DNA of 64,000 nt from the NCBI GenBank assembly GCA_951799425.1, contig OX637391.1:21438551-21502550 (forward strand), read 5' to 3'. This document shows positions 708 through 60,925 of the stretch, in pieces. Source of the stretch: Ilex aquifolium. Lineage: Eukaryota > Streptophyta > Magnoliopsida > Aquifoliales > Aquifoliaceae. Under the pieces are notes generated by a model that was given only the letters and a program-made list of their open reading frames with translations, made no database searches and was not told the DNA's origin. Made by a program: the position numbers and the translations under genes. Numbering within the stretch: position 1 is the first letter of the stretch; each line of letters opens with the position of its first letter.

Positions 708-799
708 CTATGCGTCCACCTCGGGGTCCACCGTCCCGTCAAGTGGAGTCTCCCAAGTAGCGGGCTCCTCGACCCTTAAGTCCTCCTCAAACGGGAAAT
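708..799 (-). other. conserved 92-nt LTR exon ending in a stop codon (acidic peptide)
   Basis: On the minus strand an acceptor-like ACATTTTTCAG ends at 800. The next 92 nt run in one frame to TAG at 708-710. The encoded tail reads FEEDLRVEEPATWE, then ends VDPEVDA. The same length, frame and acidic pattern occur in four other LTR families in the window (6107-6198, 19304-19395, 50795-50886, 59998-60089). No ATG opens this frame in the spliced model, so its translation is unproven. Confidence 0.55.
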
Positions 800-1325: not shown

Positions 1326-1960
1326 TCACTCATGTGCATCACAATTAACCCAACCAAGCATACAATTTCCAATATTGATTTCAATTTATAATCATCTATC
1401 CAAAATCCCCCAAAATATATCATGTAATAATTCCACAACAAACAAAGAAAATACATGAGATCACAATAACATCATTGTTCTACCCAACACAAAGCACTAA
1501 GGGTTCCAAAATATATAATAAAGAAAGCATTTAAGAAAGAAATGCATCACTCTCCAAAAATGAGGGTTTTAAAACTAGAGAAGAGATTTCATGGGTATTA
1601 AATCCTAACTTTGTTCAAAACATGTAATCTTTGTCAAAAGCCTAAGAGATGATGATTTCATAACATATATATACCATTGATAGTCAAAACATACATATAT
1701 AAATACCCTAGTCTCAATGTAAGTGAGTGAGAGAAAACCCCTACCTTGATGTTCTTGGAAATCTAGGGCTTGGATCTTGAATCACCCTTAAATTCCTTGT
1801 TTTTCACCTTTGATCTTGTGTTTTTCTCTTCCCCTCTTTCTCTCTAATTTTTTCTAGGGTTTTAAGGTGTGTAATGAAGGCTAAGGGGATGGCAAGAAGT
1901 ATTTATAATGGGGGAAAAACCGGCTGTTTGCGAACTAAAATTGTCTGATTTTTACAGCGA

Positions 1961-2377: not shown

Positions 2378-3333
2378 TGAATTTAATTGTTTGCAAAAAT
2401 GCTAATAGTGGAGATTAGAGGGAATTGTAAATTCCCAATCATGTATTTCCTATACTACCTCTAACCATAAATTTCCTGTGAGAGTTATATTTACTATAGA
2501 GCTAAATTTACATACCAATTATATTCGATATTCTATTTATAACAAAACTTCAGTATCTTGAGTATTCAATATAAGGTTTACAGGAATCCCCACCAAACAA
2601 AAATACAACCCTTTAACTTCAACATATGTTTACCTACATCACATTTGCCTTTTAATTGATAATTTGATATCATTCTCCTCTTACTGATTTTCACTTTGGA
2701 TATCCATAATAAAGTCATTTCAATACCCAAACACACACTCATACACATAACCATACATATATTAAAATTCAGTAGGCATAGATGTAGCATCTATCTATAT
2801 ACTTATTTCAAACATTAGTTATTCAATATCCTATCAAACCATCTCATTCCATTTCTTATGTAATTTTATTCCAATTACCTCTACTTCCAAATGCATATTT
2901 GTATTAAAGCATCACTAATTCAATTCATCAAACTTTTTGTTACAACGAAACCTATTCATGGGTTCTCAAATTTACATGCATTTATACCGTTGAAGCAATG
3001 CTAGAGATAAGTATCATAATTCCAAATTTATTTGCTCCCATTTATTCGCACCATCAAATTTTTCATATCAAAGTCTCCGCATCAGTGGTTATTATAATAA
3101 TCATAATCAACTACTATATTGATTTTCAATAATCTACTTCGCACGTTCTATATAGCATAGTCTTTGATGATTTATATCTTCTGAACATGCCAAAAAAGGA
3201 TGTTTTCATTGAGGCTTTTCATGTATCCAGGCATGAAGTTTGTAACATATTTTGGGGCATGTCATGAAGTGAAGTTTATTAATTCCACTTCAGTTTTTTC
3301 TTGTTAGGTTGATACTTCATTCGATGTTATGTA
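2378..3333. other. no recognisable gene
   Basis: This is AT-rich unique-looking sequence between the solo LTR and the copia insertion. I found no exon matching the RCC1-family gene, no RNA gene and no terminal repeats. It is most simply read as intron. Confidence 0.4.
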
Positions 3334-3801
3334 TGTAAAATTTTGTTTGATCAAAGAAATCAATCAAACCCTAATTCCAAGATCTAGAACAATCATGATT
3401 TTCACATACTCATATTGCGAAATTAAAACATCATAATATACATACCTGGAACCATTATTACAAACCTTGAATTACTTGAACAAGAATTGAACCATCCTTT
3501 GGTGTAGCCTGGAAATCGGTTTCTCTCTCCTAACCTTTATTCTTACAATACACAATTCGATGGGGCATGTGTATATTTATAGGTAGAGAGAGGGTCGGTT
3601 CCCTAGTTCAACATAAACTCTACTTCCCATCAAAGTAGAACATCAGGAAATCACTTCTTCTCATTGACCAATCAAAAACCATGAGTTATACCAGTTAAAT
3701 TAGGATTGGTAACCTTATCATTATCTAACCCAAATTAATTATCTGATAATAATCAGTAAAATCACATGTGCCAAATCATGTGGGCCACATTAATTCTTAC
3801 A
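3334..3801 (-). repeat. 3' LTR of the copia element
   Basis: This is the left LTR and is 3' in element sense. The adjoining internal bases at 3802 onward read, on minus, as an AAGTGGGAGAA-type polypurine tract, usual for plant copia elements. Confidence 0.92.
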
Positions 3802-5716: not shown

Positions 5717-8234
5717 TGTAACGCCCCAAATACCACCCTGGACGGCATTACATTCTAAAACCATTCATAACATGAGGGCAACTAATAAAAATCCATAAAT
5801 GACCGGGGGTCCCTAATTTAACGAAATTTGGGCAGAGTCTCCTTTGTACGGGAAGCTCTACCCAAAACACAACCTGTGCAATTATATTAACTTGACCACA
5901 CAGGGTCCATTTAACCATCCAATAACAATAAAATTTCATTTACCATCTATACTATCCATAATGTTATCCCAAAAGAATAGGCCAAGTATGGCAGTTACAT
6001 TCCCAAAAGAATTACATGAATATACTGCAGCGGAATTTCAAAAGAATCTAGACTTTACATTGTTCAGAATTAAATCTCCTAGTCTAGAACAAAATAAGCT
6101 ACATCTCTAGATGTCCCACTCGGGATCTAGGTACCCCTCCAATGAGGCGTCCCCAAGGCCCGGCTCATTAGCGCCAAGCTCCTCCTCTATAGCATAATCT
6201 GAAAAAGGTTAGCGGTAGGGGGTGAGCACGAAGCTCTGTAGAAAATTTCTTCCAAACCCAAACAAGGTTTAGAAAACATATAAAACGGGTCGGTCTCATT
6301 TCACAAATAACATATATAGTATTTGAAGTAAAACGAGGACATTTAATTAGATCCCAAGTTTACGCATCAACAATAATTTAATGAATAAATGAAACCAATA
6401 TACAATTCATAAGTAATTTCCAAAACATAATCCATCCCACCATACACCATTTCCACAAGTTCTTGTGGCATCCCATACTACCCCAAAACTCTTGTAGAAA
6501 TCGTCTATGGTAAAGTGAACAATAACCCATACTAGATGTCCGACACTATCCACGTTACTAATCCGTTATCATTAGTGCTAGGAAATGTTCGTACCCACAC
6601 GGCGTACAAAGACGTCTACCCACACCATGTGGTAGGAAAAGTTCATACCCGCGTAGCATACAAAGCCGTCTACCCACTACATGATACCCGGTCAATAGTA
6701 AACCATGTTAGTATCGTACAACCCCTCAAGAGATAACATACCAACAAACATCTCACATTACCACCAATACCATAAATCTCCAATTTTTCCATCCCACCTC
6801 ACATGTAACATTTCAATAAAACAATTTAGGAAAAACACATGAGATCATCGAAATATCATTTTATTACTCAACACATAACACTAAATTTCCTTTTTAAAAC
6901 AAGACAAAAGAGTATCCAAGGAGAATCCACACTTCATGAATAAATAGAGTTTTGAAGTGAGGACATGTGAATGTTGGGTTAGGATATCAAGGGCCAATGG
7001 ATGTAAAGCTTGAAATCAAGAACAATTAAACACAAGGTCTTGAAATTAAGAATAAAGGAATAACAAGGTGGGTCATCAATGACAAAAGAACAATCAAGCC
7101 TTGACGTCCATAGCAACAAATATCAAGCTTGGGAATCCAAAAGTGAAGGAACAATCAAGTTTTGTCATTTATAACAACAAACATTAAGATTAGACCTCAT
7201 GAACAAGGGGGAAATCAAGAGGAACCCAATTTCCTTACAATTAGAATTTCGAAGGCACACCAAGAGATTTAGCGATTACCCAAGCACAACATAGTTTAGA
7301 ACATGTAATATTTAAGGTTAGGAATCAAGAGAAAATGAGAAATCAAAGAAAACACAATCTCCTTGAAAATTTGGGGTTTCAAAGGCATACAAGGGATTTA
7401 TGGCTATCAAGCCCTAATTTCGTTCATGATATGGTAAGGGATTACAAGAGCAACAAGAAATAGAGATTCCATAACATACATATAAGATTTGGAAGCAAAA
7501 CATACATAAATATAAACCCTAACCTCAATGTAAGAGAAAAGGAAGAAATCCCCTACCTTAGATCAAGACTTTAAACTTAGAACCCAAGTTCTTGTGATCT
7601 CCTCCTTCCCTTTTCTCCCTTCTTGATCTTCCTCTAGAGTCCTAAGAGAAGTGGGTTGAGAGTGGAATGAGAGAAATGAGGAAAAATGGGATGAAATGGT
7701 GTTATATTTCGGCCAAATCCCGATTTTTACTGTTCACAGTCTGTTTTGGGGGTTCTCCGAACTTACTGTTTTCCTTATTTTTGACCATGATACACTTTGA
7801 ATCTGAAAAAGTGCAAAACATGAAAGTTGTAGATCTAGATGTCTTAGGCATTGTGTCAAAATTTCAGCTCAATCGGACCATTGTAGCAAGAGTTATGACA
7901 ATTCTACGACAACTGGTCCGGAGTAGGCAGCATACCAGGAGGCGCGCCTCAGCGCCCATTTGGGCGCCCCAGCGCCCACATTCTGTCCAAAATGGCTCCC
8001 CTTGTCATTTCCAATCCAATTTTAACCCTTCCAACTCTAATCCTAACTTATCCCACATACTTTTCTACATCAACCTAATTAGTTCAAGTTCTATTATGAT
8101 TTATTTTGTACATTTACATACCGAAACTAATCTTTAACTACTCTTTCCTTGAGTTATACTATTTTAACATTTCAAATGAAATAGTTACTAAACACCTATG
8201 TCTTTTATTTTTATATACGCATGTGGGGTATTAC
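5717..8234 (-). repeat. 3' LTR of the non-autonomous element
   Basis: This is the left copy. It contains a weak ATATAA promoter box near 7703, a donor at 7556, an acceptor at 6199 and the 92-nt conserved exon at 6107-6198. A GC-rich palindromic cluster (GGCGCGCC and GCGCCCA repeats) lies at about 7940-7980, in U3. A 156-codon plus-strand frame (7667-8137) is antisense and unlikely to be coding. Confidence 0.9.
6107..6198 (-). other. conserved 92-nt LTR exon (copy in left LTR)
   Basis: An acceptor CTAACCTTTTTCAG ends at 6199. Ninety-two nt later comes TAG (6107-6109). The frame reads DYAIEEELGANEPG and ends LDPEWDI. An identical-length copy is in the right LTR at 12114-12205. Confidence 0.55.
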
Positions 8235-8335
8235 AATCCACCCCCCTTAAAGAAAGTTTCGTCCTCGAAACTTACCTCAAGGAACGAACAAATATGGATA
8301 CTTCTCCCGCATTTCTTGCTCCGATTCCCATGTAG
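8235..8335 (-). other. polypurine tract and last codons of pol
   Basis: Positions 8235-8251 read on minus as CTTTAAGGGGGGTGGAT, directly next to the 3' LTR, and match the Tekay-like element at 20805-20821. The next 80 bp still encode the pol C-terminus (REKYPYLF). After that, similarity to pol is lost. Confidence 0.8.
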
Positions 8336-10723: not shown

Positions 10724-11542
10724 CTAAACCACATGATACGAACTAGCGTACCCATTTATGTCTAATACAACCATGTCTACCATCAATTCTCGCTCCCCAA
10801 TTCGAAGCATACCACCTATACACATCCTCTTAGTATCCAACCGTTCTCCCGTGGGCATGTCTATACTCCAAACATGTTCTAAATTCCCAAAGTCTAATCC
10901 CAAGTTATTTGCATAGGTGGGGTGTGGGAAGGAATGAGAAACATTAAACTTCAAAGAAAATACATGCCCAAGACTTTTAGAAAAAAAAACGATACCTTCC
11001 GCAATTGTATGGGAAACATCTTCCCCCGGTTGGGTCAGAATAGGAATTCTCCCTTGATCAATATTGTCGGGGGCTATATCTTCTAACGGGTTCTGCGGTG
11101 GTGGCTTCGGTGGTGGTGGCGTGTTTGCATTTACTTGTCCTATGGCTTGTTTGGTCTTTTTAGGAAATGATGGACATCTATTTTTGAAGTGCCCGAAACC
11201 GCCACATGCGAAACAGTGACGTGGGTCAGTGGCTGTTCGATTTCGAGTAGCCCTAGCTCCTTGAACCACTGGATTTCGTGGTCCTGAAGCTTGGTCAGGT
11301 CGGCAGTACGGAGCTGCCCTTGGTGCCACTCCACTGCTGCTAGCACCAGTCCTGATCGGGCCTCCCCTTGCTAAGTTCTGTTGTTGTTGGTTATTGATTC
11401 TATTCTGGTGTTGTACCAGAGTAGTTAGCTCCCTTATGCATCGATAAATGACATCCATGGTATCGGGAGGTAATGGTGGGGGTGGATTTGCTTGGCCACC
11501 ACGTCCCCGTCCACGTCCACGCCTACCCTCCATCCTGCACAT
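10724..11542 (-). CDS. shortened gag-protease frame of the non-autonomous element
   Basis: The frame has about 272 codons from the ATG shared with the Tekay-like gag (MCRMEG). The arginine/glycine-rich N-terminus (RGRGRGRGG), a proline run and a CCHC zinc knuckle (CFACGGFGHFKNRC) are kept. About 170 residues of the capsid core between the QN-rich segment and the GGPIR motif are missing. After the knuckle it runs in one frame into the protease region, but the catalytic Asp-Ser/Thr-Gly motif is gone (KFNVSHSF in its place), and it stops after GYASSYHVV. It could at most make an RNA-binding peptide. An ATG further upstream in the same frame (11570-11572) would extend it by ten residues. Confidence 0.6.
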   Translation of the reverse strand: MCRMEGRRGRGRGRGGQANPPPPLPPDTMDVIYRCIRELTTLVQHQNRINNQQQQNLARGGPIRTGASSSGVAPRAAPYCRPDQASGPRNPVVQGARATRNRTATDPRHCFACGGFGHFKNRCPSFPKKTKQAIGQVNANTPPPPKPPPQNPLEDIAPDNIDQGRIPILTQPGEDVSHTIAEGIVFFSKSLGHVFSLKFNVSHSFPHPTYANNLGLDFGNLEHVWSIDMPTGERLDTKRMCIGGMLRIGERELMVDMVVLDINGYASSYHVV

Positions 11543-11707
11543 CAATACACAATTTAGTTCCTCGATGTGCAAGACATCCTAAGTATCACTTTAGTCTGTA
11601 ACACAAGACGGGTGTGAAATCTAAATCAAACCCTTTTATTCAACTTAGTCCTAAGGCTCTAGTAGTAATCCATAACCTACAGCTCCCATGTAAGACCTAA
11701 AGCCTAA

Positions 11708-11723: not shown

Positions 11724-14242
11724 TGTAACGCCCCAAATACCACCCTGGACGGCATTACATTCTAAAACCATTCATAACATGAGGGCAACTAATAAAAATC
11801 CATAAATGACCGGGGGTCCCTAATTTAACGAAATTTGGGCAGAGTCTCCTTTGTACGGGAAGCTCTACCCAAAACACAACCTGTGCAATTATATTAACTT
11901 GACCACACAGGATCCATTTAACCATCCAATAACAATAAAATTTCATTTACCATCTATACTATCCATAATGTTATCCCAAAAGAATATGTCAAGTATGGCA
12001 GTTACATTCCCAAAAGAATTACATGAATATACTGCAGCGGAATTTCAAAAGAATCTAGACTTTACATTGTTCAGAATTAAATCTCCTAGTCTAGAACAAA
12101 ATAAGCTACATCTCTAGATGTCCCACTCGGGATCTAGGTACCCCTCCAATGAGGCGTCCCCAAGGCCCGGCTCATTAGCGTCAAGCTCCTCCTCTATAGC
12201 ATAATCTGAAAAAGGTTAGCGGTAGGGGGTGAGCACGAAGCTCTGTAGAAAATTTCTCCCAAACCCAAACAAGGTTTAGAAAACATATAAAACGGGTCGG
12301 TCTCATTTCACAAATAACATATATAGTATTTGAAGTAAAACGAGGACATTTAATTAGATCCCAAGTTTACGCATCAACAATAATTTAATGAATAAATGAA
12401 ACCAATATACAATTCATAAGTAATTTCCAAAACATAATCCATCCCACCATACACCATTTCCACAAGTTCTTGTGGCATCCCATACTACCCCAAAACTCTT
12501 GTAGAAACCGTCTATGGTAAAGTGAACAATAACCCATACTAGATGTCCGACACTACCCACGTTACTAATCCGTTATCATTAGTGCTAGGAAATGTTCGTA
12601 CCCACACGGCGTACAGAGACGTCTACCCACACCATGTGGTAGGAAAAGTTCATACCCGCGTAGCATACAAAGCCGTCTACCCACTACATGATACCCGGTC
12701 AATAGTAAACCATGTTAGTATCGTACAACCCCTCAAGAGATAACATACCAACAAACATCTCACATTACCACCAATACCATAAATCTCCAATTTTTCCATC
12801 CCACCTCACATGTAACATTTCAATAAAACAATTTAGGAAAAACACATGAGATCATCGAAATATCATTTTATTACTCAACACATAACACTAAATTTCCTTT
12901 TTAAAACAAGACAAAAGAGTATCCAAGGAGAATCCACACTTCATGAATAAATAGAGTTTTGAAGTGAGGACATGTGAATGTTGGGTTAGGATATCAAGGG
13001 CCAATGGATGTAAAGCTTGAAATCAAGAACAATTAAACACAAGGTCTTGAAATTAAGAATAAAGGAATAACAAGGTGGGTCATCAATGACAAAAGAACAA
13101 TCAAGCCTTGACGTCCATAGCAACAAATATCAAGCTTGGGAATCCAAAAGTGAAGGAACAATCAAGTTTTGTCATTTATAACAACAAACATTAAGATTAG
13201 ACCTCATGAACAAGGGGGAAATCAAGAGGAACCCAATTTCCTTACAATTAGAATTTCGAAGGCACACCAAGAGATTTAGCGATTACCCAAGCACAACATA
13301 GTTTAGAACATGTAATATTTAAGGTTAGGAATCAAGAGAAAAGGAGAAATCAAAGAAAACACAATCTCCTTGAAAATTTGGGGTTTCAAAGGCATACAAG
13401 GGATTTATGGCTATCAAGCCCTAATTTCGTTCATGATATGGTAAGGGATTACAAGAGCAACAAGAAATAGAGATTCCATAACATACATATAAGATTTGGA
13501 AGCAAAACATACATAAATATAAACCCTAACCTCAATGTAAGAGAAAAGGAAGAAATCCCCTACCTTAGATCAAGACTTTAAACTTAGAACCCAAGTTCTT
13601 GTGATCTCCTCCTTCCCTTTTCTCCCTTCTTGATCTTCCTCTAGAGTCCTAAGAGAAGTGGGTTGAGAGTGGCATGAGAGAAATGAGGAAAAATGGGATG
13701 AAATGGTGTTATATTTCGGCCAAATCCCGATTTTTACTGTTCACAGTCTGTTTTGGGGGTTCTCCGAACTTACTGTTTTCCTTATTTTTGACCATGATAC
13801 ACTTTGAATCTGAAAAATTGCAAAACATGAAAGTTGTAGATCTAGATGTCTTCGGCATTGTGTCAAAATTTCAGCTCAATCGGACCATTGTAGCAAGAGT
13901 TATGACAATTCTACGACAACTGGTCCGGAGTAGGCAGCATACCAGGAGGCGCGCCTCAGCGCCCATTTGGGCGCCCCAGCGCCCACATTCTGTCCAAAAT
14001 GGCTCCCCTTGTCATTTCCAATCCAATTTTAACCCTTTCAACTCTAATCCTAACTTATCCCACATACTTTTCTACATCAACCTAATTAGTTCAAGTTCTA
14101 TTATGATTTATTTTGTACATTTACATACCGAAACTAATCTTTAACTACTCTTTCCTTGAGTTATACTATTTTAACATTTCAAATGAAATAGTTACTAAAC
14201 ACCTATGTCTTTTATTTTTATATACGCATGTGGGGTATTACA
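11724..14242 (-). repeat. 5' LTR of the non-autonomous element
   Basis: This is the right copy, nearly identical to 5717-8234. The donor is at 13563, the acceptor at 12206 and the conserved exon at 12114-12205, so the predicted intron is 1,358 nt, as in the left copy. Confidence 0.92.
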
Positions 14243-18130: not shown

Positions 18131-18872
18131 TAAGAAACTCATCAATAGTTCAATAACATTCTTGCATAACTATGTAACATTAATAAGCATTATCCATATG
18201 CAAAAGTACTAACTTAATATTTTTCATAATTATCATTCGCATAATCATAATGTCCAGTCTATTCAATCCCTTATAGGCTTTGTGCAAAACTTTTTTCATT
18301 AGAACTACTTGATTCAGTAATAGCACTAAAGTGTCAGACAAGTAGTCAAAATACATAAGTGAAATTGAATTTGTTCACATCAATCTGAAAATACTCATTC
18401 CATTAAGTATCGAACTAGACAAAGTATGTGAATGTAACAATACATGAACTAACAATAAAAGAAGGTAATTGCTCACTACATTAATGCTTTGATTCATCTA
18501 TAAGTTTAACCATAAGATAGAATAAAATATATATTCTAATAAGCAATAAGTAGTACTATCGTGACTCTCTTTTGGGTAGTAATCACGATATACTAATACA
18601 TTAACCATTATGGTGATTCTCTCTCACCTAATAGGACTAATTAATAATATATTCATAATTAGGTAGCTCTGTCACCTTTGGGCATCCGTTCCACACCCAT
18701 TATGAATATACATCAATCATCCTATTCCAGTTAATTAATCACTTGAAAGGTGGTGCACCTTTGGGCCGATTCCTAATATCCAAGTGATCAAGAAACTGCG
18801 ATTTGTAAGTCATTATTTTAATACATCGGTAATGTGTATTAAATATCAATTATATGATTTAATACTTATTAG

Positions 18873-19039
18873 TCATTCTAGTTGGGCCACTTTGGCGGCT
18901 ACCGAACTATGTCATAATATAGGCATTAAATCAAAATAATGACATTACACAAAAAATTATTTTAATATCACAAGATAATTGATATTAAAATTGATTATTT
19001 GATTTGGTATCTATAAGTCATTCTAGTTGGGTCACTTTG
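18873..19039. repeat. copia leader tandem repeats, left part
   Basis: Units of about 127-145 bp begin TCATTCTAGTTGGG, continue (T/C)CACTTTGG and then an AT-rich stretch. Starts are at 18873 and 19018. The array is cut by the gypsy insertion at 19040 and continues at 27321. Confidence 0.8.
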
Positions 19040-20804
19040 TGTAATACCCCAAAACACACCCTGGACGGCATTACATTCTAGAACATTCACATCATGAGAG
19101 CACTAGAATAATCCATCAATAAATAAGACTTCATAAAGTCATCCATAAAATTTACAGTATTATCCCAAAAGAATAAACCCATTTTGGCCTTTACATTCCA
19201 AAAATCACATAATGTAGCGCAGCGGAAATAACAAAAGAAAACTAGACCTTACAAGGTTCAAAATGAATATCCTAGTCTAGTACAAAAAGGAAAGGAGGTC
19301 GCTCTATGCGTCCACCTCGGGGTCCACGTTCCCTTCTACGGGAGCTTCCCAATGTCCCGGCTCGTCAGTTCCGAGCTCCTCCTCTAGACAAAGACCTGAA
19401 ATATGTTGTTTGTAGGGGGTGAGCACGAAGCTCTGTAGCAACATTCCTCCCAAACTTTAACAAGGTTTATAAAAGCATATAAAATGGCCGATCTCATTTC
19501 ACAAATAGCATATATAATCTTTGAAGTAAAACATGGATATTTTAGTAGATCTCAAGTTTAAGGAACAACAGTAATTGAATGAATAAGTGAAACCACTATA
19601 GAGTTAGTAAACCATTTCCAAATATAATTCAATCCACCATACACAGTTTCCAACAATTCTTTCGGTAGGTGACATACTTTAGGGTAACCTCCACCTCCGT
19701 TTAGATCGTCTTTGATTCTCAAGCATCCTTACAAGGAACCTCTTGAGAATGGGTGAGCATCCTTACAAGGAACCTCTCACTCTTGTGTATCACAAACAAC
19801 CTCAACCAAGCTTACAATTCCAATATTGATTTCAATTTACAATCATCTATCCAAACTCCCCCAAAATATATCATGTAATAATTCCACAACTAACAAAGAA
19901 AATACATGAGATCACAATAACATCATTGTTCTACCCAACACAAAGCACTAAGGGTTCGAAAATCCATAATAAAGAAAGCATTTAAGAAAGAAATATATCA
20001 CTCTCCAAAAATGAGGATTTTAAAACTAGAGAAGAAATTTCATGGGTATTAAACCCTAGCTTTGTTCAAAACATGTAATCTTTGCCAAAAAGCCTAAGAG
20101 ATGATGATTTCATAGCATATATATACCATTGATAGCCAAAACATACATATATAAATACCCTAACCTCAATGTAAGAGAGTGAGAGAAAACCCCTACCTTA
20201 TGCTCTTGAAGAAACCTAGGGTTTGAGTCTTGAATCACTTGTGAACCCTTTGTCTTTCCTTGTTTTTCACCTTTGATCTTGTGTTTTTCTCTTCCCCTCT
20301 TTCTCTCTAATGTTTTCTAGGGTTTTAAGGTGTGTAATGAAGGCTAAGGGGATGGCAAGAAGTATTTATAGTGGGGGAAAAACCGGCTGTTCGCGAACTA
20401 AAATTGTCTGATTTTTTACAGTGACTACCGGTAGTTAAACTATGACTACCGGTAGTTCGACTATTCTGGGCACTGGACTACCTGTTGACTACCGGTAGTC
20501 CGAGTACACTGGGCACTTGACTACCTGTTGACTACCGGTAGTTGATCCCAGATTTGCCTACTTCCTTTATTTTTCATTTCTAATCCATTCCAATCTCTTC
20601 CAAAACCATCCCAAACCTCTCCAACATATATTTCTACCTCAAACCTATTTAGTACAAGTTCTAGGACATAAAATTTCATATTTTCACATACTAAAACTAA
20701 ATTTCAAATATTATTTCCTCGAGTTATACTATATCAACATTTTTAAAACAATTATTTACTATATATCTATATACATATATAAAAGAAAAATGCGGGGTGT
20801 TACA
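19040..20804 (-). repeat. 3' LTR of the Tekay-like element
   Basis: The LTR is 1,765 bp. It has a predicted donor at 20196, an acceptor at 19396 and the 92-nt exon at 19304-19395. Four CTACCGGTAG palindromes lie at about 20430-20545. One G fewer than in the 5' LTR near 19417 closes the read-through frame found there, but not the 92-nt exon. Confidence 0.93.
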
Positions 20805-20821
20805 ATCCACCCCCCTTAAAG
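20805..20821 (-). other. polypurine tract
   Basis: On minus this reads CTTTAAGGGGGGTGGAT, directly before the 3' LTR. It is the expected plus-strand primer site. Confidence 0.85.
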
Positions 20822-20845
20822 AAAGTTTCGTCCTCGAAACTTACC

Positions 20846-23800
20846 TCAAGTAGCGAACAAATATGGATACTTCTCCCGCATTTCTTGCTCCGGTTCCCAT
20901 GTAGCTTCCTCCACTCCATGGTGTTGCCACAAAACTTTCACCAGCTGGATGACTTTGTTGCAAAGCTCTTTCTCCTTTGTGTCGAGAATTCTCACCGGTT
21001 GCTCTTCATATGTTGCTCCGTCTTGGATTTCAATCTCCTCCAAGTTCACGACTGGAGTTGCATCCGAGTGACACCTTCTCAACATGGACATGTGGAACAC
21101 ATCATGTACTCCGGATAGCTGGGCTGGTAGTCGAAGTTGATATGCCGCCTTGCCTATCGCTTTGATTATCTCAAACAGTCCGGTATATCTTGGCGCTAGC
21201 TTCCCCTTCTTGCCGAATCGAAACACGCCCTTCTTGGGTGACACCTTGAGAAATACGTAGTCTCCCACCTTGAATTCTAAGGGTCTTCGTCTGTGGTCCG
21301 CATAGCTCTTCTGTCTACTTTGCGCCGTCCGTAGCCTCTCTCAGATGAGTTGAATCTTCTCCGTAGTTTCTCGAACAATGTCCGGTCCCAACAAACTACT
21401 CTCACCGGATTCTAACCAACACGTCGGTGATCGGCATGGTCTTCCATACAATGCTTCATACGGTGCCATCCCAATACTTTCCTGATAGTTGTTGTTGTAA
21501 GCAAACTCCACCAACGGTAAGTGGTCGCTCCAACTCCCCTTGAAGTCCAACGCGCAAGTGCGTAACATATCCTCCAAAATCTGGATCACCCTCTCGGATT
21601 GGCCATCCGTTTGGGGATGAAAAGCTGTACTGAAATGTAACTCCGTCCCCATCGCTTGTTGTAGACTCTGCCAGAATCTCGCCACAAACCTAGAGTCACG
21701 ATCCGACACAATCGAGAGCGGAACGCCGTGTAATCTCACTATCTCACAGATATACAACTGGCTCAAAGTCTCGAATGTATCCGTGGTCTTCATACCCAAA
21801 AAGTGAGCGGACTTGGTGAGTCTATCCACAATGACCCACACTACATTATGCCCACGCAACGTCCGTGGTAAACCCGACACGAAGTCCATGGTGATGTGAT
21901 CCCACTTCCACTCTGGAATAGGCAAAGACTGTAGGACTCCTCCCGGCCTTTGATGCTCAATCTTCACTTGCTGGCACACCACACATTTTGCCACATACTT
22001 GGCCACATCTCGCTTCATTCCCCTCCACCAGTATTGACGCTTCATGTCCCTATACATCTTTGTGCTACCGGGGTGGATAGCAAACTTGGAGCGATGACAC
22101 TCTCCAAGTATTTCCTCCTTTAGGGACGAATCATTGGGAACACATAGCTTCTCCCCATATCTCAACTCTCCATTCTTCCAAGACCATCCTTCAATCACTT
22201 CTCCATTCTCTAATCGGGCTCTAATAAAATCGAGTTCCGAATCCAGGCATTGCAACTCCACCACTCGTTGCAGAAGCGTCGGTTGAGCTATAAGGTTGAA
22301 TATATAGGGTTGATACTCCGGTCCATCCACCCATAGATCGTACTCCTCCAATGCATCAATCATTTTCCACCTATTTACCGCAAGAGAATTGATTTCACCC
22401 CGAGACTTCCTGCTAAGAGCGTTGGCAACTACATTGGCCTTCCCCGGATGGTAGTTGAGCGTGAACTCATAATCTTCCAAGTACTCAATCCACCTTCTCT
22501 GCCGGAGATTCAAGTCTTTCTGTGTGAAGATATACTTAAGGCTTTTATGGTCCGAGAACACTTGAAATTTCTCCCCGTATAAATAACATCTCCACAACTT
22601 AAGAGCAAACACCACCGCAGCTAGCTCCAAGTCGTGTGTGGGATAATTCTGCTCATGCACCTTGAGTTGCCTCGAGCCATAAGCCACTACCTTCCCTCCT
22701 TGCATTAGAACGCATCCCAAGCCTCTTAGTGAAGCATCGGTGTAGACATCGTAGCTTTCCCCACTACTCGGAATGATGAGGATAGGTGTCGTCGTCAACT
22801 TCTCCTTCAAGGTGCGGAAAGCTAGTTCACACGCTTGAGTCCACGAAAATTTCTCCCCCTTCTTTGTAAGGCGAGTCATCGACATCGCAAGCTTGGAGAA
22901 TCTTTCCACAAACCTACGATAATAGCCGGCTAACCCCAAGAAACTCCGTACTTCTGTCACGTTCTTCGGTGGTTCCCATTTCATCACGGCCTCAATCTTT
23001 GCGGGATCAACCGCTACTCCTTGCTCGGACACAACATGGCCAAGGAACTTCACTTCCTTCATCCAAAACTCACACTTGCTCATCTTTGCATATAACTTAT
23101 GTTCTCTCAATGTTTGTAGCACCATAGAGAGATGACGAGCATGTTCCTCTTGAGTCTGTGAGTAAACCAATATGTCATCAATAAACACAATGACAAATTG
23201 ATCGAGGTAAGGCCGGAAGACTCTGTGCATCAATTCCATGAAGGCTGCGGGGGCATTAGTCAATCCGAACGGCATCACCGTATACTCGAAATGACCATAC
23301 CGGGTACGGAAAGTAGTCTTAGGAATATCCTCCTCCTTAATCCACAGCTGATGATACCCCGTGCGAAGATCAATCTTGGAGTAATACTTTGAACCCTTCA
23401 ACTGATCAAATAAGTCATCAATTCTCGGCAACGGATACTTATTCTTCACGGTAACCTGATTCAACCTCCGGTAATCCGTGCACAACCGTAGAGTCTCATC
23501 CGTTTTCTTCACAAAGAGGACCGGGGCTCCCCAGGGTGAAGTGCTTAGACGGATAAACCCAATCGCCAACAAATGATCCAACTGCTTCCTTAGCTCCTTC
23601 AACTCCAAAGGTGCCATCCGGTAGGGAGCAATAGATATGGGTTCGGTTCCCGGATAGAGATCGATCTTGAATTCAATTTCCCTATGTGGCGGTAATCCGG
23701 GTAATTCCTCGGGAAAAACATCTGAAAACTCCGATACAATTAACACCACATCCGTGTGGAGTTTATCCTTGTTATCTCCCATCAAGCTAGCTAAGAAACT

Positions 23801-24345: not shown

Positions 24346-25362
24346 TGGTGGTTGGGCTGCTGGTACCTTTCTGGCGGTCTGGATCGGCCCCTGAGGTGGA
24401 TAGACTGGGCAATGCATCCGAAGATGTCCCACATCTCCGCATGCAAAGCAGGATCGTGGGATAAAACCGGCTCTAGTCTGAGTGTCTCCCTCTCCTCGGG
24501 CTGTCAAAAGTCGCTGTCCCCCTGTCTGATCTGGGCGACGGTATGGTGTCGGTCTCTGTGCCCCACTAGTGCTAGCACCCTTCCGTATCGGACCTCCTCT
24601 CGAGAAGCCCTGTCGTCGCTGGCTATCCTCTATGTCTCTCTCTACCAGTGCAGCTCTGTCCACCAAGTCCCCAAATTCACGGATCTTGAGAGCCACCAAC
24701 TTCTCCCTAATAGCCGGCCTCAGACCCTGCTCGAAGCGCTTGGCCCTGTCGGCCTCAGTAGATATAAATCCCATAGCATAACGGGAGAGCTCGTCGAACC
24801 GCCTCTCATACTCAGCCACGGTCATACCACCTTGTCGTAATGCAAGAAAATCCGCCTTCATTCGGTCTCTGACTGATTCAGGGAAATATTTATCTTGGAA
24901 AAGTTGATCGAATTCTTCCCAAGTGAGTATGTCGGTGTCCTTTCTCCTCTTTATGGCATCCCACCAATAGTCGGCCTCCCCCTCAAACAGGTAGGTCGCC
25001 AAACCCACTCTCAACTCCTCGGCAACTCCCATGCCGTCACAGATCTTCTTCACTCGGCGAATCCATCTATCCGCCTCCAAAGGATTGGAGCTCCCTTGGA
25101 AGTTGGGTGGTCGTTGTCGTAAGAATTCTCGAAGAGCTATCATCCTTCGGTCTCCGTTCTCATTGCCCGATACTTGAGCGAGAGGATGAGCTCCACCATT
25201 GTGGTTATTGTTACCATTTTGGTTTTGTACCAAAGTGGTGAGCTCCCTCAAGCATTGGTAAATGCCTTGCATGGCATCCGGAGGTGGTGGTGGTGGTGGA
25301 TTCGCTTGACCTCCACGGCCACGCCCACGTCCGCGTCCCCGTGTCCCGTCCATCCTGCACAT
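24268..25362 (-). CDS. Gag protein of the Tekay-like element
   Basis: About 364 codons from ATG at 25360-25362. It starts with an arginine/glycine-rich segment ([11 protein letters not shown]) and a proline run, then the retrotransposon gag core ([47 protein letters not shown]), and a CCHC knuckle, [14 protein letters not shown], near residue 308. Gag forms the cytoplasmic particle that packages element RNA. The final 30 or so codons are probably out of the ancestral frame: a one-base gain in the CCCC run (plus-strand GGGG at 24342-24345) separates gag from protease, whereas the related frame at 10724-11542 reads through without a shift. A programmed frameshift is possible but less likely. 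Confidence 0.88.
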
Positions 25363-25538
25363 CAATCTATAATTTAGTTCCCTTGATGTGCCAGATATAA
25401 ACTATAGTGATATGTAGGATGTCTTGATTTAAGCACAAGGCATATACAAAATTTAACTTAACAATTTCCCCCACCCTAAACCTACATCTCTAGTGGTAAT
25501 CCATAACCTACAGCTCCCATGTAAGATCTAAAGCCTAG

Positions 25539-25550
25539 GCTCTGATACCA
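25539..25550 (-). other. primer-binding site, initiator tRNA-Met
   Basis: This reads TGGTATCAGAGC on minus, 4 bp inside the 5' LTR. Confidence 0.92.
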
Positions 25551-25818
25551 AATTTGTAACACCCCAAAACACACCCTGGACGGCATTACATTGTAGAACA
25601 TTCACATCATGAGAGCACTAGAATAATCCATCAATAAATAAGACTTCATAAAGTCATCCATAAAATTTACAGTATTATCCCAAAAGAATAGACCCATTTT
25701 GGCCTTTACATTCCAAAAATCACATAATGTAGCGCAGCGGAAATAACAAAAGAAAACTAGACCTTACAAGGTTCAAAATGAATATCCTAGTCTAGTACAA
25801 AAAGGAAAGGAGGTCGCT

Positions 25819-25910
25819 CTATGCGTCCACCTCGGGGTCCACGTTCCCTTCTACGAGAGCTTCCCAATGTCCCGGCTCGTCAGTTCCGAGCTCCTCCTCT
25901 AGACAAAGAC
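25819..25910 (-). other. conserved 92-nt LTR exon in the 5' LTR
   Basis: The acceptor CATATTTCAG ends at 25911. The frame reads CLEEELGTDEPGHWE and ends VDPEVDA at TAG (25819-25821). Joined to exon 1 through the donor at 26712, the codon just before the junction is TAA, so spliced RNA has no AUG-initiated frame across the junction. Confidence 0.55.
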
Positions 25911-26878
25911 CTGAAATATGTTGTTTGTAGGGGGGTGAGCACGAAGCTCTGTAGCAACATTCCTCCCAAACTCTAACAAGGTTTATAAAAGCATATAAAA
26001 TGGCCGGTCTCATTTCACAAATAGCATATATAATCTTTGAAGTAAAACATGGACATTTTAGTAGATCTCAAGTTTAAGGAACAACAGTAATTGAATGAAT
26101 AAGTGAAACCACTATAGAGTTAGCAAACCATTTCCAAATATAATCCAGTCCACCATACACAGTTTCCAACAATTCTTTCGGTAGGTGGCATACTTTAGGG
26201 TAACCTCCACCTCCGTTTAGATCGTCTTTGATTCTCAAGCATCCTTACAAGGAACATCTTGAGAATGGGTGAGCATCCTTACAAGGAACCTCTCACTCTT
26301 GTGTATCACAAACAACCTCAACCAAGCTTACAATTCCAATATTGATTTCAATTTACAATCATCTATCCAAACTCCCCCAAAATATATCATGTAATAATTC
26401 CACAACTAACAAAGAAAATACATGAGATCACAATAACATCATTGTTCTACCCAACACAAAGCACTAAGGGTTCGAAAATCCATAATAAAGAAAGCATTTA
26501 AGAAAGAAATACATCACTCTCCAAAAATGAGGATTTTAAAACTAGAGAAGAAATTTCATGGGTATTAAACCCTAGCTTTGTTCAAAACATGTAATCTTTG
26601 CCAAAAAGCCTAAGAGATGATGATTTCATAGCATATATATACCATTGATAGCCAAAACATACATATATAAATACCCTAACCTCAATGTAAGAGAGTGAGA
26701 GAAAACCCCTACCTTATGCTCTTGAAGAAACCTAGGGTTTGAGTCTTGAATCACTTGTGAACCCTTTGTCTTTCCTTGTTTTTCACCTTTGATCTTGTGT
26801 TTTTCTCTTCCCCTCTTTCTCTCTAATGTTTTCTAGGGTTTTAAGGTGTGTAATGAAGGCTAAGGGGATGGCAAGAAG

Positions 26879-26886
26879 TATTTATA
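26879..26886 (-). promoter_or_regulatory. LTR TATA box
   Basis: On minus this is TATAAATA within CACTATAAATACTTC. Transcription should begin about 30 bp further along the minus strand, near 26850. The leader from there to the donor at 26712 contains no ATG. Confidence 0.7.
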
Positions 26887-27320
26887 GTGGGGGAAAAACC
26901 GGCTGTTCGCGAACTAAAATTGTCTGATTTTTTACAGTGACTACCGGTAGTTAAACTATGACTACCGATAGTTCGACTATTCTGGGCACTGGACTACCTG
27001 TTGACTACCGGTAGTCCGAGTACACTGGGCACTTGACTACCTGTTGACTACCGGTAGTTGATCCCAGATTTGCCTACTTACTTTATTTTTCATTTCTAAT
27101 CTATTCCAATCTCTTCCAAAACCATCCCAAACCTCTCCAACATATATTTCTACCTCAAACCTATTTAGTACAAGTTCTAGGACATAAAATTTCATATTTT
27201 CACATACTAAAACTAAATTTCAAATATTATTTCCTCGAGTTATACTATATCAACATTTTTAAAACAATTATTTACTATATATCTATATACATATATAAAA
27301 GAAAAATGCGGGGTGTTACA

Positions 27321-27800
27321 CTTTGGTGACTACCAAACCATAGCATAATATATATATGAAATCAAAATAATAACAGTATATAAACTATTATTTTAATATC
27401 ATGATATAATGAATATTAAAATCAATTATGCGATTCGATATCTATGAGTCATTCTAGTTGGGTCACTTTAGTGACTACTAAACTATATCATAATATAGAT
27501 CTCGAATCGAAACAATAATTTTAATATCTCAATCATGGATATTAAATATCAATTAAATGATTTAATATCTATGTATCATTCTAGTTGGGTCACTTTGGTG
27601 ACTACCAAACCATATCATAATATAGATACGAAATCGAAATAATGTCATCATATAAACTATTATTTTAATATCTCAATAATAGATATTAAATATTAATTAT
27701 ATGATTTGAAATCTATGAATCATTCTAGTTGGGTCACTTTGGTGACTACCAAATTATATCGTAATATAGATCTCAAATCAAAATAATGACTTTAAATAAA
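27321..27800. repeat. copia leader tandem repeats, right part
   Basis: This continues the array cut at 19039. Further units begin at 27449, 27576 and 27720. Joining 19039 to 27326 restores a 145-bp unit, which confirms the insertion point. Confidence 0.82.
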
Positions 27801-28384
27801 TCATAAGATTAATAATAATCCATTGCCAACTATTCATCATTATGACACACAAGATCTTTCATTAGACCTAAATAGATCAATCAATAAATAAAATCTTGTG
27901 CTTTAATAAAATTTTATACATTATACAGAATATCATGAATATATGAATCACTCAAAGTTCCATGATCTGTGCTTAGAATCTAAAGACAACATAAAATATT
28001 TTTGGGTCTTTTAATATAGCCAATATATATTAGCCAACAAACAAACAAAACTACAAGTGGAACACTCTGCCACATATTACGATTCATTGCACATAAATTA
28101 GATGACCAACAATTAACTATGACATAGACACCTGTTGGTAGATTACCCATACTAACGTTCTGGGGTTACGTGAAGTTAAACAATTAAAGAAACTATTATT
28201 AACTGAATCTCAATGATTCTGATCATGTGGGCTTTCCTTGCTGTACTATATATGTGGGTGACATAAATCGTACAAAAATCTAGAGTCCAAATACAAGTTT
28301 AGATCTAGATTCATTCTACGGTTCACAACGATGGTAATTAAAAATATATTTCTTTAATGGAAAATCACGAGAGTTCATAACACA

Positions 28385-28397: not shown

Positions 28398-28399
28398 CA

Positions 28400-28867
28400 T
28401 GTAAAATTTTGTTTGATCAAAGAAATCAATCAAACCCTAATTTCAAGATCTAGAACAATCATGATTTTCACATACTCATATTGCGGAATTAAAACATCAT
28501 AATATATATACCTGGAACCATTATTACAAACCTTGAATTACTTGAACAAGAATTGAACCATCCTTTGGTGTAGCTCGGAAATCGGTTTCTCTCTCCTAAC
28601 CTTTATTCTTACGATACACAATTCGATGGGGCATGTGTATATTTATAGGTAGAGAGAGGACCAGTTCCCTAGTTCAACATAAATTCTACTTCTCATCAAA
28701 GTAGAACATCAGGAAATCACTTCTTCTCATTGACCAATCAAAAACCATGAGTTATACCAATTAGATTAGGATTGGTAACCTTATCATTATCTAATCCAAA
28801 TTAATTATCTGATAATAATCAGTAAAATCACATGTGCCAAATCATGTGGGCCACATTAATTCTTACA
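28400..28867 (-). repeat. 5' LTR of the copia element
   Basis: This 468-bp copy is about 97 percent identical by eye to 3334-3801. On minus it holds a TATAAATA box (CCTATAAATATACAC form) near 28640. Confidence 0.92.
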
Positions 28868-32995: not shown

Positions 32996-35159
32996 TTATG
33001 TTTGTCCATCATAATGTTTAGCCTGCAGGCAAAGAGCATTTTTCTTGTGCATTGTTATACCAGGTATCACATCAGTGTCTATATCTTCCTTCTTCATCTC
33101 AGCAGGTAGTTCCCAATCAAATGAGTAGAGTAAATTAGCAAGTGCATGCTCAACTAGTATTGAACCCATGTGTATTGCAGGACAGATTCTCCGACCAGCT
33201 CCAAAAGGAATTAACTCAAAATGTTGTCCTTTAAAATCAATATCACTGTCCAAAAATCTTTCAGGCAAGAACTCATCTGGGTTTTCCCAAGCTTCAGGGT
33301 CTCTTCCAATGGCCCATGCATTCACATAAACTAAGGTTTTGGGTTGGATTTCATACCCATCTATAATGCATTTCTGAGTAGTTTCTCGAGGAACTAGAAG
33401 TGGAACAGTTGAGTATAATCTCATTGTTTCTTTGACCACTGCCTTGAGATAAGGAAGGTTTTGAAGATCATCTTCATCTACTTTACCTTTTTCTACAACC
33501 AACTTTCTAATTTCTTCTTGCACTTTCTTCATCACTCTAGGGTTTTTCATCAGTCCCGTCATAGCCCAGACTAGAGTGGCTGCACCTGTGTCCGATCCAG
33601 CAACCAACATATTCTGCCATAAAAATGGAATAGAATAAAATAGGGTAATTATCATTTAGACTCCGACATATCTTCAATGAAGGCTGAAGCCCTCCAAACA
33701 TTACTGACACCATATAATGCAATTTTATTAAATTATTCGTGATATATTTTAAGAAAAATTTCGTCTACATTCTTTTTAGATAGATATATCTTCAATAAGA
33801 CCCCCTCTATTTTTTGAATTTTAATATGTAAAAAAAATATAAATTTTAATCGACTTGAATCGAATTTTAATTGACGCTAACAACTGAGGTTGAACTTGAA
33901 ACGACTCGAAATTTAATACGTTAAATTTTTTTTTAATATGCTCAAATTCTAATGCATAAAAAAAATAAAATTTAATAAGTTCGAATCAAATTTTAATTGG
34001 ATCAGAGTTTAATATGTAGAAAAATAAATTTTAATCGACTTGAATTTTAAACAAATTTTATGTAAAAAGATTGTTTGGGATTTATGTAGAGGTAAAGAAT
34101 AGGGTGTCAATGATATTTTGGATAATAAAAGAGGTCTGATTGAAAATATGTCTATGTAGGGACGTGTGGATAAGAATTACCCAATAAAATATTAAAGAAC
34201 TTTTTTTTCTCCCCTCAAATTATAAGAGTAGAAGTTCTAGGAACAAGAAAAAGTTTGAAGTTAATGATATTTGTTACCATGAGAACGGCTTTAATGTGGT
34301 CGAAATTGAGATCAATGGAACACAATTGATCTTCTTTCAGTTGAAGCAGGATGTCGATGAAGTCCTCTTGAGTACCTTTTGTCTTCTTTTGATCTGGATG
34401 ATCATCGATAAGTTGTTGGTAGAACGCATCCATTTCTGTAAAATTCTGCTCAAGCCGAGAACGTAATCCAGTGAGTTTATCAATCCAACCAAAGATCGGA
34501 AAATGGTCTGATACAAAGAGGATTCCAAACATGGCCTGAGTTTCATTAAGTAGTCTATGAAATCTACTCCTCTCAGCCCCTTCATCATCATACCTTTTAC
34601 CAAAAGCAACTCTACAGATAGTAGCACTTGTGAGAGACATTACTATGTCACTCAAATTTGTCAGCTTAGATGAAGAAGCTTGTTGAGATATTTTCTTGAT
34701 CATTCGACCAACTTCATCGTCACGAATGGGACGAAAGGATTGTACTCTTTTGGAACTAAAGAGATTGATAATACAAATTTTTCTGATCTCTTTCCAGTAG
34801 TCATTGTAGGGTGCAAAAACCATGTCTAGGCCATTATAAGACAGTTTTTGCTGACCAACCAAGGCAGGCCTGCTAGAAAATGCGAGGTCATGGGTTTTCA
34901 AGACCTCTTTTGCTATTCTTGCTGATGAAACTACGAGGGTTGGTACAAAACCAAGACGCAAGGACATGAGAGGGCCGTATTTCTTGGAAAGTTGCCATAG
35001 GTATTTATGGGGGGCTGAGTTATCGATCTGGTGTAAGTTTCCGAGGAAGGGTAGTCCTGAAGGACCTGGAGGACGAAGCAGTTCGTTATTTTTTATGTAC
35101 TTAGGAAGAACAAAGAAGAAAATAATAGGGAGAGCTAGAACACAAAAGAGTAACAACAT
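32996..35159 (-). CDS. cytochrome P450, CYP71 clan (CYP71/CYP83-like), two exons
   Basis: Exon 1 is 35159-34278 (294 codons) and exon 2 is 33613-32996 (205 codons plus stop). A phase-0 GT-AG intron separates them (ATG|GTAACA and GGCAG|AAT), giving 499 residues, the normal length. The N-terminus is a hydrophobic ER anchor (about residues 1-20), followed by the proline hinge PPGPSGLPFLGN. The I-helix oxygen-binding motif is AGSDTGAA, the K-helix is KETMRL (ExxR), PERF is present, and the heme loop is FGAGRRICPA with the cysteine ligand. The usual Gly after the cysteine motif is Ala here, common in this clan. Such enzymes are ER-bound monooxygenases of specialised metabolism; the substrate cannot be read from sequence. 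A TATTTAAAG box lies about 70 bp upstream of the ATG (near 35230). Confidence 0.93.
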
Positions 35160-50794: not shown

Positions 50795-50886
50795 CTAGAT
50801 GTCCCACTCGGGATCCAAGTACCCCTCTAATGAAGCTTCTCCATGGTCCGGCTCGTTAGCACCGAACTCCTCCTCCAGCCCATAAT
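50795..50886 (-). other. conserved 92-nt LTR exon
   Basis: The frame reads DYGLEEEFGANEPDHGE and ends LDPEWDI. Without splicing it also continues upstream into an open 89-codon frame from 51064 that contains MRPTGSY and FFYRASCSPP. Confidence 0.55.
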
Positions 50887-59770: not shown

Positions 59771-60925
59771 TATCTATACAACATCCAACCATGAGAGCAT
59801 CTAAAATAGTCATTAAATAATAGAAACCATTCAACATTCAACAACTAACTAGATAAATTTTCAAAAAAAATATAAATGATTCTTTAGGTTTATATTCAAA
59901 CCAAAATAATAGTCTTCAAACTAACTAAATAGAAAATATTTATAACATTGTCACATAACTAAATTTCAAAAAACAACTAAACTAGACAAAAACAACTTTA
60001 AACTTCTAAATCTGGATCCACATCCTGATCTAGCTCAGCCTCAAAATCATCATGTTCGTCTAGTATGATACCCTCTTCAAGTCCATAATCTGAAAAATGT
60101 TATATCGTGGAATGAGCACAAAGCCCACTAGAAAAACATTCTCAAACCCAAACAATGTTTCGAAAACATAAAACAGGTAAGTTGCAGGTTGTAAAATAAA
60201 TTCATAAACTTTGAAGTAAAATAATGACATTTGAATACGATCTCAAGTTTACTATACAAAATAGTAATTTCATCACAAAGTATAATAATTTGCCAATACT
60301 ATAACTCAAAACATAATATCTCATTGTACGTAGGTAAACTACTGTAAATCTATACACCGAACCTATCTCGTATACCCACCACAAACACAAATCATCTCAA
60401 TCAATCCCTACAAGGTCACAACAGTCATAAACTCTTTAGAAATGATGTCTATCGACTCATTCAACATTGACGAATTATTCTCTATTATAGTATATTAGCA
60501 ATCAGCTTCGAACCTTCGTGAACAATAGTGATTGACTCTCATAAGAAATCAAACCCCCTACAAGTGTTAGGTAACCATCAAACCCCTCGAGGTAAAAAAA
60601 AGCCTCTAACACTCTATGATACACATTCGAGTGTAATCCCCGTTCATTAACCCACCCATCCAAAAGATAATACAACACTTTTTCCACAAAACCACATGAT
60701 AAAAACACGTAAGAAGATAAAAATCGCGACATAACCATAGTGACATAATCACTATGTATAACAATCTTCTATTGTGACATACATGATATCCACAATGACA
60801 CAATGATAGCCACAGTACACAGACACTGTATATAATAACCTTCTACTACGATATACGTGATATCCATAGTGACAACCACAATAACACAATCACTGTATAT
60901 AACGACCTTTTACTGCGATAGCAAT

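What the first reader, a model, noticed from the sequence alone, without database searches (positions are those of the whole stretch)
25819..26712. LTRs of five gypsy families share a leader intron and an exactly 92-nt exon encoding an acidic peptide
On the minus strand each LTR has a donor of GTAGGG type, an intron and a CA(T)nCAG-type acceptor. From acceptor to stop is exactly 92 nt in every family: 708-799, 6107-6198 (and 12114-12205), 19304-19395 (and 25819-25910), 50795-50886 and 59998-60089. The frame is the same (two bases complete a split codon, then 29 codons and a stop). Aligned without gaps, the peptides keep EE at positions 5-6, an acidic middle, DP at positions 25-26 and a final D/E plus hydrophobic residue before the stop. 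Predicted introns are 945, 1358, about 802 and 1095 nt in the four families with a clear donor. The first exons I checked contain no ATG, and in two families the codon before the junction is TAA. The peptide therefore either starts elsewhere, joins another donor, or the constraint is not translational. I know of no description of this arrangement.
Basis: partly seen in the sequence, partly recalled or inferred. Interest (0 to 1): 0.85.

Follow-up and report, generated by a model that had tools for sequence, protein, structure and literature searches.

The report
Protein-coding splice exon hidden in LTRs
The terminal repeats of a large group of plant retrotransposons carry a short exon that evolves like real protein code for a 29-residue acidic tail, probably an extra end for a spliced element protein, although no RNA or protein evidence could be examined here.

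Summary
All seven copies lie at the stated coordinates, 92 nt from acceptor to stop, in one frame. A genome search anchored only on the intron's 3' end gave 4,834 matches (reversed control 0). At 80 distinct LTR places read, a stop sits at nt 90-92 in 78, and 72 are fully open. Across 21 divergent exons the frame shows protein-level constraint (synonymous fraction 0.43 vs 0.27 expected, z 5.8; other sense frames 0.2 and -4.0). So the constraint is translational, but the LTR leader intron is not a likely route. LTR exon 1 has no ATG in 10 of 10 representative sequences (8.6 expected) and in-frame stops in 5 of 5 elements read. It fits an AUG-free leader spliced to the acceptor just before gag ATG. 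In six full-length copies the one strong conserved donor in gag-pol is GAG|GTAAGT, 1 nt after the gag-pol stop, in the exon's phase. Best model: the exon is the last exon of a gag-pol mRNA, in the 3' LTR, giving an acidic C-terminal tail if the in-frame stop is read through. Splicing and readthrough are inferred; no RNA was available.

The parts
708..799 (-). 92-nt acidic exon, LTR A (solo-like LTR about 446-2372)
1743..1744 (-). LTR exon 1 donor CAAG|GTAGGG of LTR A (GT)
   Evidence: intron 945 nt
6107..6198 (-). 92-nt acidic exon, 3' LTR of element B
8270..8279 (-). gag-pol end of element B: stop TGA, then G|GTAAGT (donor GT starts at 8275)
11531..11544 (-). acceptor TGATGTGCAG|G directly before gag ATG (A at 11533), element B
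12114..12205 (-). 92-nt acidic exon, 5' LTR of element B
19040..20804 (-). 3' LTR of element C
19304..19395 (-). 92-nt acidic exon in the 3' LTR of element C (proposed last exon)
20839..20848 (-). gag-pol end of element C: stop TGA, then G|GTAAGT (donor GT starts at 20844); proposed donor for the acidic exon
25351..25364 (-). acceptor TGATGTGCAG|G directly before gag ATG (A at 25353), element C; proposed partner of LTR exon 1
25539..25550 (-). primer binding site TGGTATCAGAGC, element C
25555..27320 (-). 5' LTR of element C
25819..25910 (-). 92-nt acidic exon in the 5' LTR of element C
25911..25947 (-). conserved intron end GCTTCGTGCTCAC...TTTCAG before the exon
26713..26855 (-). ATG-free LTR exon 1 (TATA at 26886, donor GT at 26712; start assumed 32 nt after the start of CTATAAATA)
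50795..50886 (-). 92-nt acidic exon, LTR D (donor GT at 51981)
59998..60089 (-). 92-nt acidic exon, divergent LTR fragment E (stop TAA, no donor recognised)

Best explanation
The LTR carries a terminal coding exon. Shown from sequence: a 3' splice-site-like sequence, then exactly two bases plus 29 codons plus stop, under purifying selection for an acidic peptide. Inferred: the element makes two kinds of RNA. Unspliced RNA is the genome. In the mRNA, an AUG-free LTR exon 1 is spliced to the acceptor directly before gag ATG, removing the AUG-rich leader and the primer site. The donor 1 nt after the gag-pol stop is spliced to the acidic exon in the 3' LTR, removing the polypurine tract and U3. 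The exon is then in phase with gag-pol, so reading through the stop (mostly UGA) adds one split codon (Asp, Gly or Glu in most) plus 29 acidic residues after the integrase/chromodomain end; otherwise the exon is 3' UTR. The 5' LTR copy is there because both LTRs are copied from one template.
For: Coding: on a tree of 21 divergent open exons, synonymous fraction 0.428 vs null 0.270, 0 of 1000 shuffles as high; other sense frames z 0.2 and -4.0; changes per codon position 72/58/127; pN/pS 0.48 vs 0.84 and 1.35. E4, E11, D24 invariant in 21 of 21, net charge -7 to -13. The frame is closed upstream: an in-frame stop lies 4 codons before the exon in 47 of 87 readings. Leader: 0 ATG in 10 representative exon 1 sequences (from 28 copies with a recognisable TATA box and donor), 8.6 expected, 58 in equal lengths just inside the intron, 23 just upstream of the TATA box. 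Gag acceptor: TGATGTGCAG|GATG in 5 of 6 elements (L095 has CAAG) while the mid-leader varies. Pol donor: 7.5 bits in 6 of 6, next conserved site 2.9 bits (matrix approximated by me); 0.12 such sites per shuffled L097 region; phase 1 as required. 13 of 15 gag-pol ends in the fetched regions have G|GTAAGT. On the window's minus strand G[AG]GGTAAGT occurs only at the two gag-pol ends.
Against: A stop precedes the donor in 97 of the first 100 of 1,801 listed gag-pol ends (92 TGA, 5 TAA, 2 GGA, 1 TGG; several from tandem arrays; the pattern itself required RRTAAG, so it does not test the donor). TAA is a poor readthrough codon and UGA-G is not a known strong context (recalled). The phase match alone is 1 in 3. 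Stop and donor lie in a predicted stable hairpin (elements B and C: -19.2 and -15.7 kcal/mol, z -3.4 and -3.3), which could by itself explain their conservation. No gag-pol end/exon join exists in the genome (0 matches), and no convincing exon 1/exon 2 join (22 matches, control 16); spliced RNA lacking primer site or polypurine tract would hardly retrotranspose, so this is weak either way. The exon is less conserved in DNA (0.695) than the 92 nt before (0.859) or after it (0.767), and gapped alignments opened 1.3 gaps per pair in it (2.6 before, 4.6 after) although lengths are equal. L100 lacks the donor yet has intact exons. No RNA or protein data.
Confidence: 0.4

Rival explanations
1. The exon is the last exon of a separate accessory protein, with a start in gag and an internal gag or pol donor of phase 1, as in the Cer1 CERV protein of C. 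elegans.
For: Cer1 makes a regulator from a spliced mRNA whose first three exons share the gag frame and which ends in a distinct C-terminal exon (abstract and passages of PMC10309623). No leaky stop is needed. L097 has weak phase-1 donors in gag at 136 and 319 (2.8 bits).
Against: Besides the gag-pol end no donor conserved in the six elements scores above 2.9 bits.
Confidence: 0.22
2. One reading: LTR exon 1 joins exon 2 in the 5' LTR and the peptide starts at a non-AUG codon or an unseen start.
For: Both splice sites lie in the same LTR and the donor is recognisable in most window copies.
Against: Exon 1 has stops in the peptide frame in 5 of 5 elements read; no near-cognate start is kept in the first residues of exon 2 (positions 1-7); 17-22 ATGs would then precede gag and exon 2 shows no ATG avoidance.
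Confidence: 0.12
3. The acidic exon is joined to upstream host exons: an LTR in a host intron gives host transcripts a terminal exon.
For: It has the marks of a terminal exon (acceptor, short frame, stop).
Against: Would not be expected to create selection on the peptide across LTR families. Not tested directly.
Confidence: 0.04
4. No translation: the conservation is of an RNA signal (splicing enhancer, packaging or 3' end signal) and the frame is incidental.
For: Flanking non-coding DNA is more conserved than the exon; GAGGAGGAG resembles purine-rich splicing enhancers (recalled).
Against: Frame-specific synonymous excess, z 5.8, with none in the other two sense frames; stop at nt 90-92 in 78 of 80 places.
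Confidence: 0.08

Closest known systems
CRM centromeric chromoviruses with the integrase end inside the 3' LTR
   Same: A portion of the integrase lies within the 3' LTR (one figure-legend passage of PMC3059260).
   Different: Here a splice junction is needed and a stop intervenes. The words 'intron' and 'splic' do not occur in that paper's main text.
Ogre (Tat lineage) of legumes
   Same: A plant Ty3/gypsy element with an intron spliced from a subset of transcripts (passage in PMC6317226).
   Different: [quoted passage not shown]
BARE1 of barley
   Same: Separate RNA pools for translation and replication, one of them spliced (abstract and passages of PMC3735527).
   Different: The intron is 104 nt at the end of gag, not in the LTR; a Copia element (recalled).
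Cer1 CERV of C. elegans
   Same: A Ty3-like element makes an extra protein by splicing gag-frame exons to a 3' exon (abstract and passages of PMC10309623).
   Different: 517 residues; [quoted passage not shown] sequence relation not tested.
Additional ORFs of plant Ty3/gypsy elements (5' aORF of sunflower Tekay)
   Same: Extra conserved protein in Tekay elements (abstract and passages of PMC11728184).
   Different: A 402-residue ORF at the 5' side of gag-pol; the ORF search there used minimum_length 300, which would miss this exon.
Spliced isoforms of expressed sunflower LTR elements (Tyran, Varan)
   Same: Plant LTR-element RNAs with spliced introns found by direct RNA sequencing (passages of PMC7730604).
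   Different: The isoforms described encode truncated GAG or RT-RH; the passages seen do not describe an LTR exon.
MMTV sag (recalled)
   Same: Protein encoded within the LTR and expressed by splicing.
   Different: Long ORF with its own start; animal retrovirus; not compared here.

Membership tests
Plant chromovirus, Tekay/Del clade | gag, protease, RT, RNase H, integrase on one strand in this order | tested here: met
   Pfam gag, RVP_2, RVT_1, RNase H, H2C2, rve (rve below its cut-off) in element C; L097 gag-pol frame open to codon 1497
Plant chromovirus, Tekay/Del clade | chromodomain at the integrase C-terminus | tested here: inconclusive
   L097 C-terminal 400 aa: Chromo E 0.0027, 18.0 bits, below the 25.1 cut-off, but at the expected end (353-396)
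Plant chromovirus, Tekay/Del clade | RT phylogeny within Tekay | not tested
   no reference RT set was on hand; the name is a working label
Spliced plant LTR retrotransposon (Ogre-like strategy) | spliced transcripts shown | not testable with these tools
   no RNA data; splice sites inferred from conservation
Spliced plant LTR retrotransposon (Ogre-like strategy) | intron between gag-pro and RT frames | tested here: not met
   single gag-pol frame in L097; predicted introns are in the leader and across the 3' LTR
CRM-type pol end in 3' LTR | unspliced pol frame continues into the 3' LTR | tested here: not met
   stop before the LTR in 97 of 100 listed ends; the LTR starts about 40 nt downstream in the six elements
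Stop-codon readthrough extension | conserved stop followed by in-frame conserved coding sequence to a second stop | tested here: inconclusive
   the sequence pattern is there, but only if the predicted splice is used, which is not shown
Stop-codon readthrough extension | measured readthrough | not testable with these tools
   needs reporter or ribosome profiling

The most novel reading that the evidence does not exclude
A plant Ty3/gypsy lineage encodes an acidic C-terminal tail for Gag-Pol in its LTR, reached only when a post-stop intron is spliced and the gag-pol stop is read through. Splicing thus both marks RNA for translation and sets the fraction of integrase that carries a tail, for example one that steers integration.
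Probability: 0.27. Interest if true: 0.82.

Novelty: new variant of a known kind. Interest (0 to 1): 0.66.

Why it matters
LTRs are treated as regulatory DNA. Here LTR copies by the thousand in one genome match the signal in front of a selected coding exon that ORF searches miss, because it is 29 codons, has no start and needs splicing. It would give a plant chromovirus a route to separate translation from replication RNA and an unrecognised protein part, and it makes concrete predictions that long-read RNA of this plant could test.

Tried and rejected
Unspliced reading: in-frame stop 4 codons before the exon in 47 of 87 readings; in 25 readings none was found in the up to 30 codons looked at, so the unspliced frame is open there but not generally. 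Antisense coding: the one low antisense ratio (0.588; others 1.19 and 1.64) I put down to shared third positions. Retrocopied spliced junctions as an RNA archive: gag-pol end/exon 0 matches; exon 1/exon 2 pattern 22 matches vs 16 reversed control: 9 look like LTR acceptors with CAG changed to AAG, one (C4:51727122) shares 9 letters with the exon 1 end of L086 but its exon side does not match, the rest look like chance; exon 1/gag pattern did not complete. Whether other lineages with TTTCGAGGACGAAATT lack the donor: not completed. Eight loci of other TGTAACACCCC repeats (L001-L008): no acceptor match. Relatives outside this genome: 48 matches in viral contigs, none with the peptide, one with a 29-codon frame by chance; gag-pol-end pattern 0 in viral contigs, 2 matches in bacterial genome records, not followed. 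Pfam on four peptides and Rfam on the window: nothing. Coding in the conserved intron end was only looked at by eye. Two notes hold slips: says 17 of 20 for the second pattern (it is 16 of 20, plus 5 of 5) and says about 90 TGA and 7 TAA (it is 92 and 5).

Full report
What was checked. The seven 92-nt stretches were read directly on the minus strand; each follows an NCAG acceptor and ends with a stop in the same frame, and the GTAGGG donors give the stated intron lengths. A profile of the peptide finds these seven places and nothing else in the window.

More than chance. The window lies at C1:21438551-21502550 of an 800-Mb genome. A pattern taken only from the end of the intron, so blind to the exon, matched 4,834 times with 0 in the reversed control. 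Of the first 30 loci 27 are of this LTR type and 24 of these have the first in-frame stop exactly at nt 92. In 20 further regions, chosen by me for LTR pairs and unusual variants, it is 34 of 35 readings. A second pattern anchored about 160 nt upstream and excluding the common sequence gave 73 matches, control 0; 25, picked by me for variety, were read and 21 have exactly 92. Seven places were read in both of the first two sets, so the tally is 80 distinct places: 72 open with the stop at 92, 78 with a stop codon at nt 90-92 (for 55 places, for 25). In the other two frames of the first set the first stop falls at 6 and 8 different places. The 8 failures look like point nonsense changes, one lost stop (L115), and L064, which does not resemble the exon.

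Is it protein? 62 of 72 distinct exon sequences are open (the 72 include the unrelated repeat); 21 of the 62 differ from each other at 9 or more positions (only open ones were used, which biases against stops but not towards synonymous change). On a tree of these 21, 110 of 257 changes are synonymous against 27% expected when the same changes are placed at random on the same parents (z 5.8, 0 of 1000); the other sense frames give z 0.2 and -4.0. Changes concentrate at third positions (127 vs 72 and 58). Residues E4, E11 and D24 are invariant, positions 20 (E/D), 23 (V/L) and mostly 27 and 29 exchange alike residues, and net charge is -7 to -13. This is evolution of a protein. The neighbouring non-coding DNA is even more alike between 12 representatives (0.859 before, 0.767 after, 0.695 in the exon), so the exon changes fast but in codon steps. 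In that call the gapped alignments opened 1.3 gaps per pair in the exon (2.6 before, 4.6 after); as the open exons are all 92 nt long I take these as alignment noise.

Where does it start? Probably not in LTR exon 1. In 10 representative exon 1 sequences (from 28 copies with a recognisable TATA box and donor, 20 distinct; counted from 33 nt after the TATA match to the donor) there is no ATG, with 8.6 expected from their own dinucleotides, 58 in equal lengths just past the donor and 23 just before the TATA box. That sharp edge is independent evidence that exon 1 and its donor are real. But in the peptide frame exon 1 carries stops in 5 of 5 elements read, in two of them directly at the junction. 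If exon 1 were joined to exon 2, 17-22 ATGs would precede gag, and exon 2 itself shows no ATG avoidance (33 vs 37.9). What exon 1 fits is the acceptor directly before gag: TGATGTGCAG|GATG in 5 of 6 elements, with a branch-like ACTRA some 20-25 nt before it in 5 of 6, while the middle of the leader varies. Joined so, the gag ATG is the first ATG of the mRNA.

What then joins exon 2? In six full-length copies (window C, L088, L089, L094, L095, L097; internal identity 0.80-0.97) the gag-pol region holds one strong conserved donor, GAG|GTAAGT, 7.5 bits in all six against 2.9 for the next (matrix approximated by me); shuffles of the L097 region give 0.12 such sites. It lies 1 nt after the gag-pol stop, so a splice to the 3' LTR acceptor removes the polypurine tract and U3 and puts the acidic frame in phase with gag-pol. 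Of 15 gag-pol ends in the 20 fetched regions 13 have G|GTAAGT; the exceptions are L093 and L100. The window's minus strand has this donor only twice, at the two gag-pol ends. The difficulty is the stop: 97 of the first 100 of 1,801 listed ends have TGA (92) or TAA (5) there (several are tandem-array units). So a tail on Gag-Pol needs readthrough. The same stretch folds into a strong hairpin that includes stop and donor; this may regulate splicing, or may be the real reason for the conservation.

Reading. Shown: exact-length, frame-conserved, protein-constrained exon at an LTR acceptor; ATG-free exon 1; a strong phase-matched donor after gag-pol. Inferred: the two splices. Speculative: readthrough and a role of the tail. 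The closest precedents are the spliced RNAs of Ogre and BARE, the spliced CERV product of Cer1 and the LTR-coded integrase end of CRM (passages read, not whole papers). A recent review says that plant LTR elements generally lack introns, with Ogre and EVADE as exceptions (passage of PMC12786077). I saw no description of this arrangement in the listings of nine searches of open-access papers (one search returned none, and several listed only the best 8-20 of 56-108 papers); subscription papers are not covered.

Noticed in passing
window 8237-8283 and 20806-20852, minus strand: The gag-pol stop, the GTAAGT donor and the stretch up to the polypurine tract fold into one hairpin around the palindrome GTTTCG AGGA CGAAAC (-19.2 and -15.7 kcal/mol, z -3.4 and -3.3); 2,518 TTTCGAGGACGAAAYTT sites in the genome.
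   Followed up: partly
intron end just upstream of the acceptor, as in window 800-847, minus strand: GAGC-UUCGU-GCUC mini-hairpin overlapping the conserved GTGCTCA motif upstream of the acceptor (one sequence folded, z -2.7).
   Followed up: partly
G000:C1:28176952-28262615, 25344430-25421946, 18778373-18795541: Regularly spaced gag-pol ends or LTR acceptors (about 5.1, 6.9 and 5.7 kb apart), as expected of tandem arrays of whole elements sharing LTRs.
   Followed up: no
window 3333-3801 and 28399-28867: 469-bp direct repeat, 97% identical, with a primer-binding-site motif right after the second copy (28397-28386): possibly LTRs of another element into which elements B and C inserted.
   Followed up: no
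window 18812-19039 and 27319-27814: Element C is flanked on both sides by copies of one repeat, so it probably inserted into a small tandem repeat.
   Followed up: no
window 34215-35159 and 57897-59246, minus strand: Frames matching cytochrome P450 (part) and pentatricopeptide repeats.
   Followed up: no
L100 (G000:C1:202700-211300): A shorter element with intact acidic exons whose internal 3' end differs and lacks the GTAAGT donor.
   Followed up: no
G000:C1:25542523 and 25548030: Two gag-pol ends with GGA in place of the stop before the donor; these would not need readthrough.
   Followed up: no
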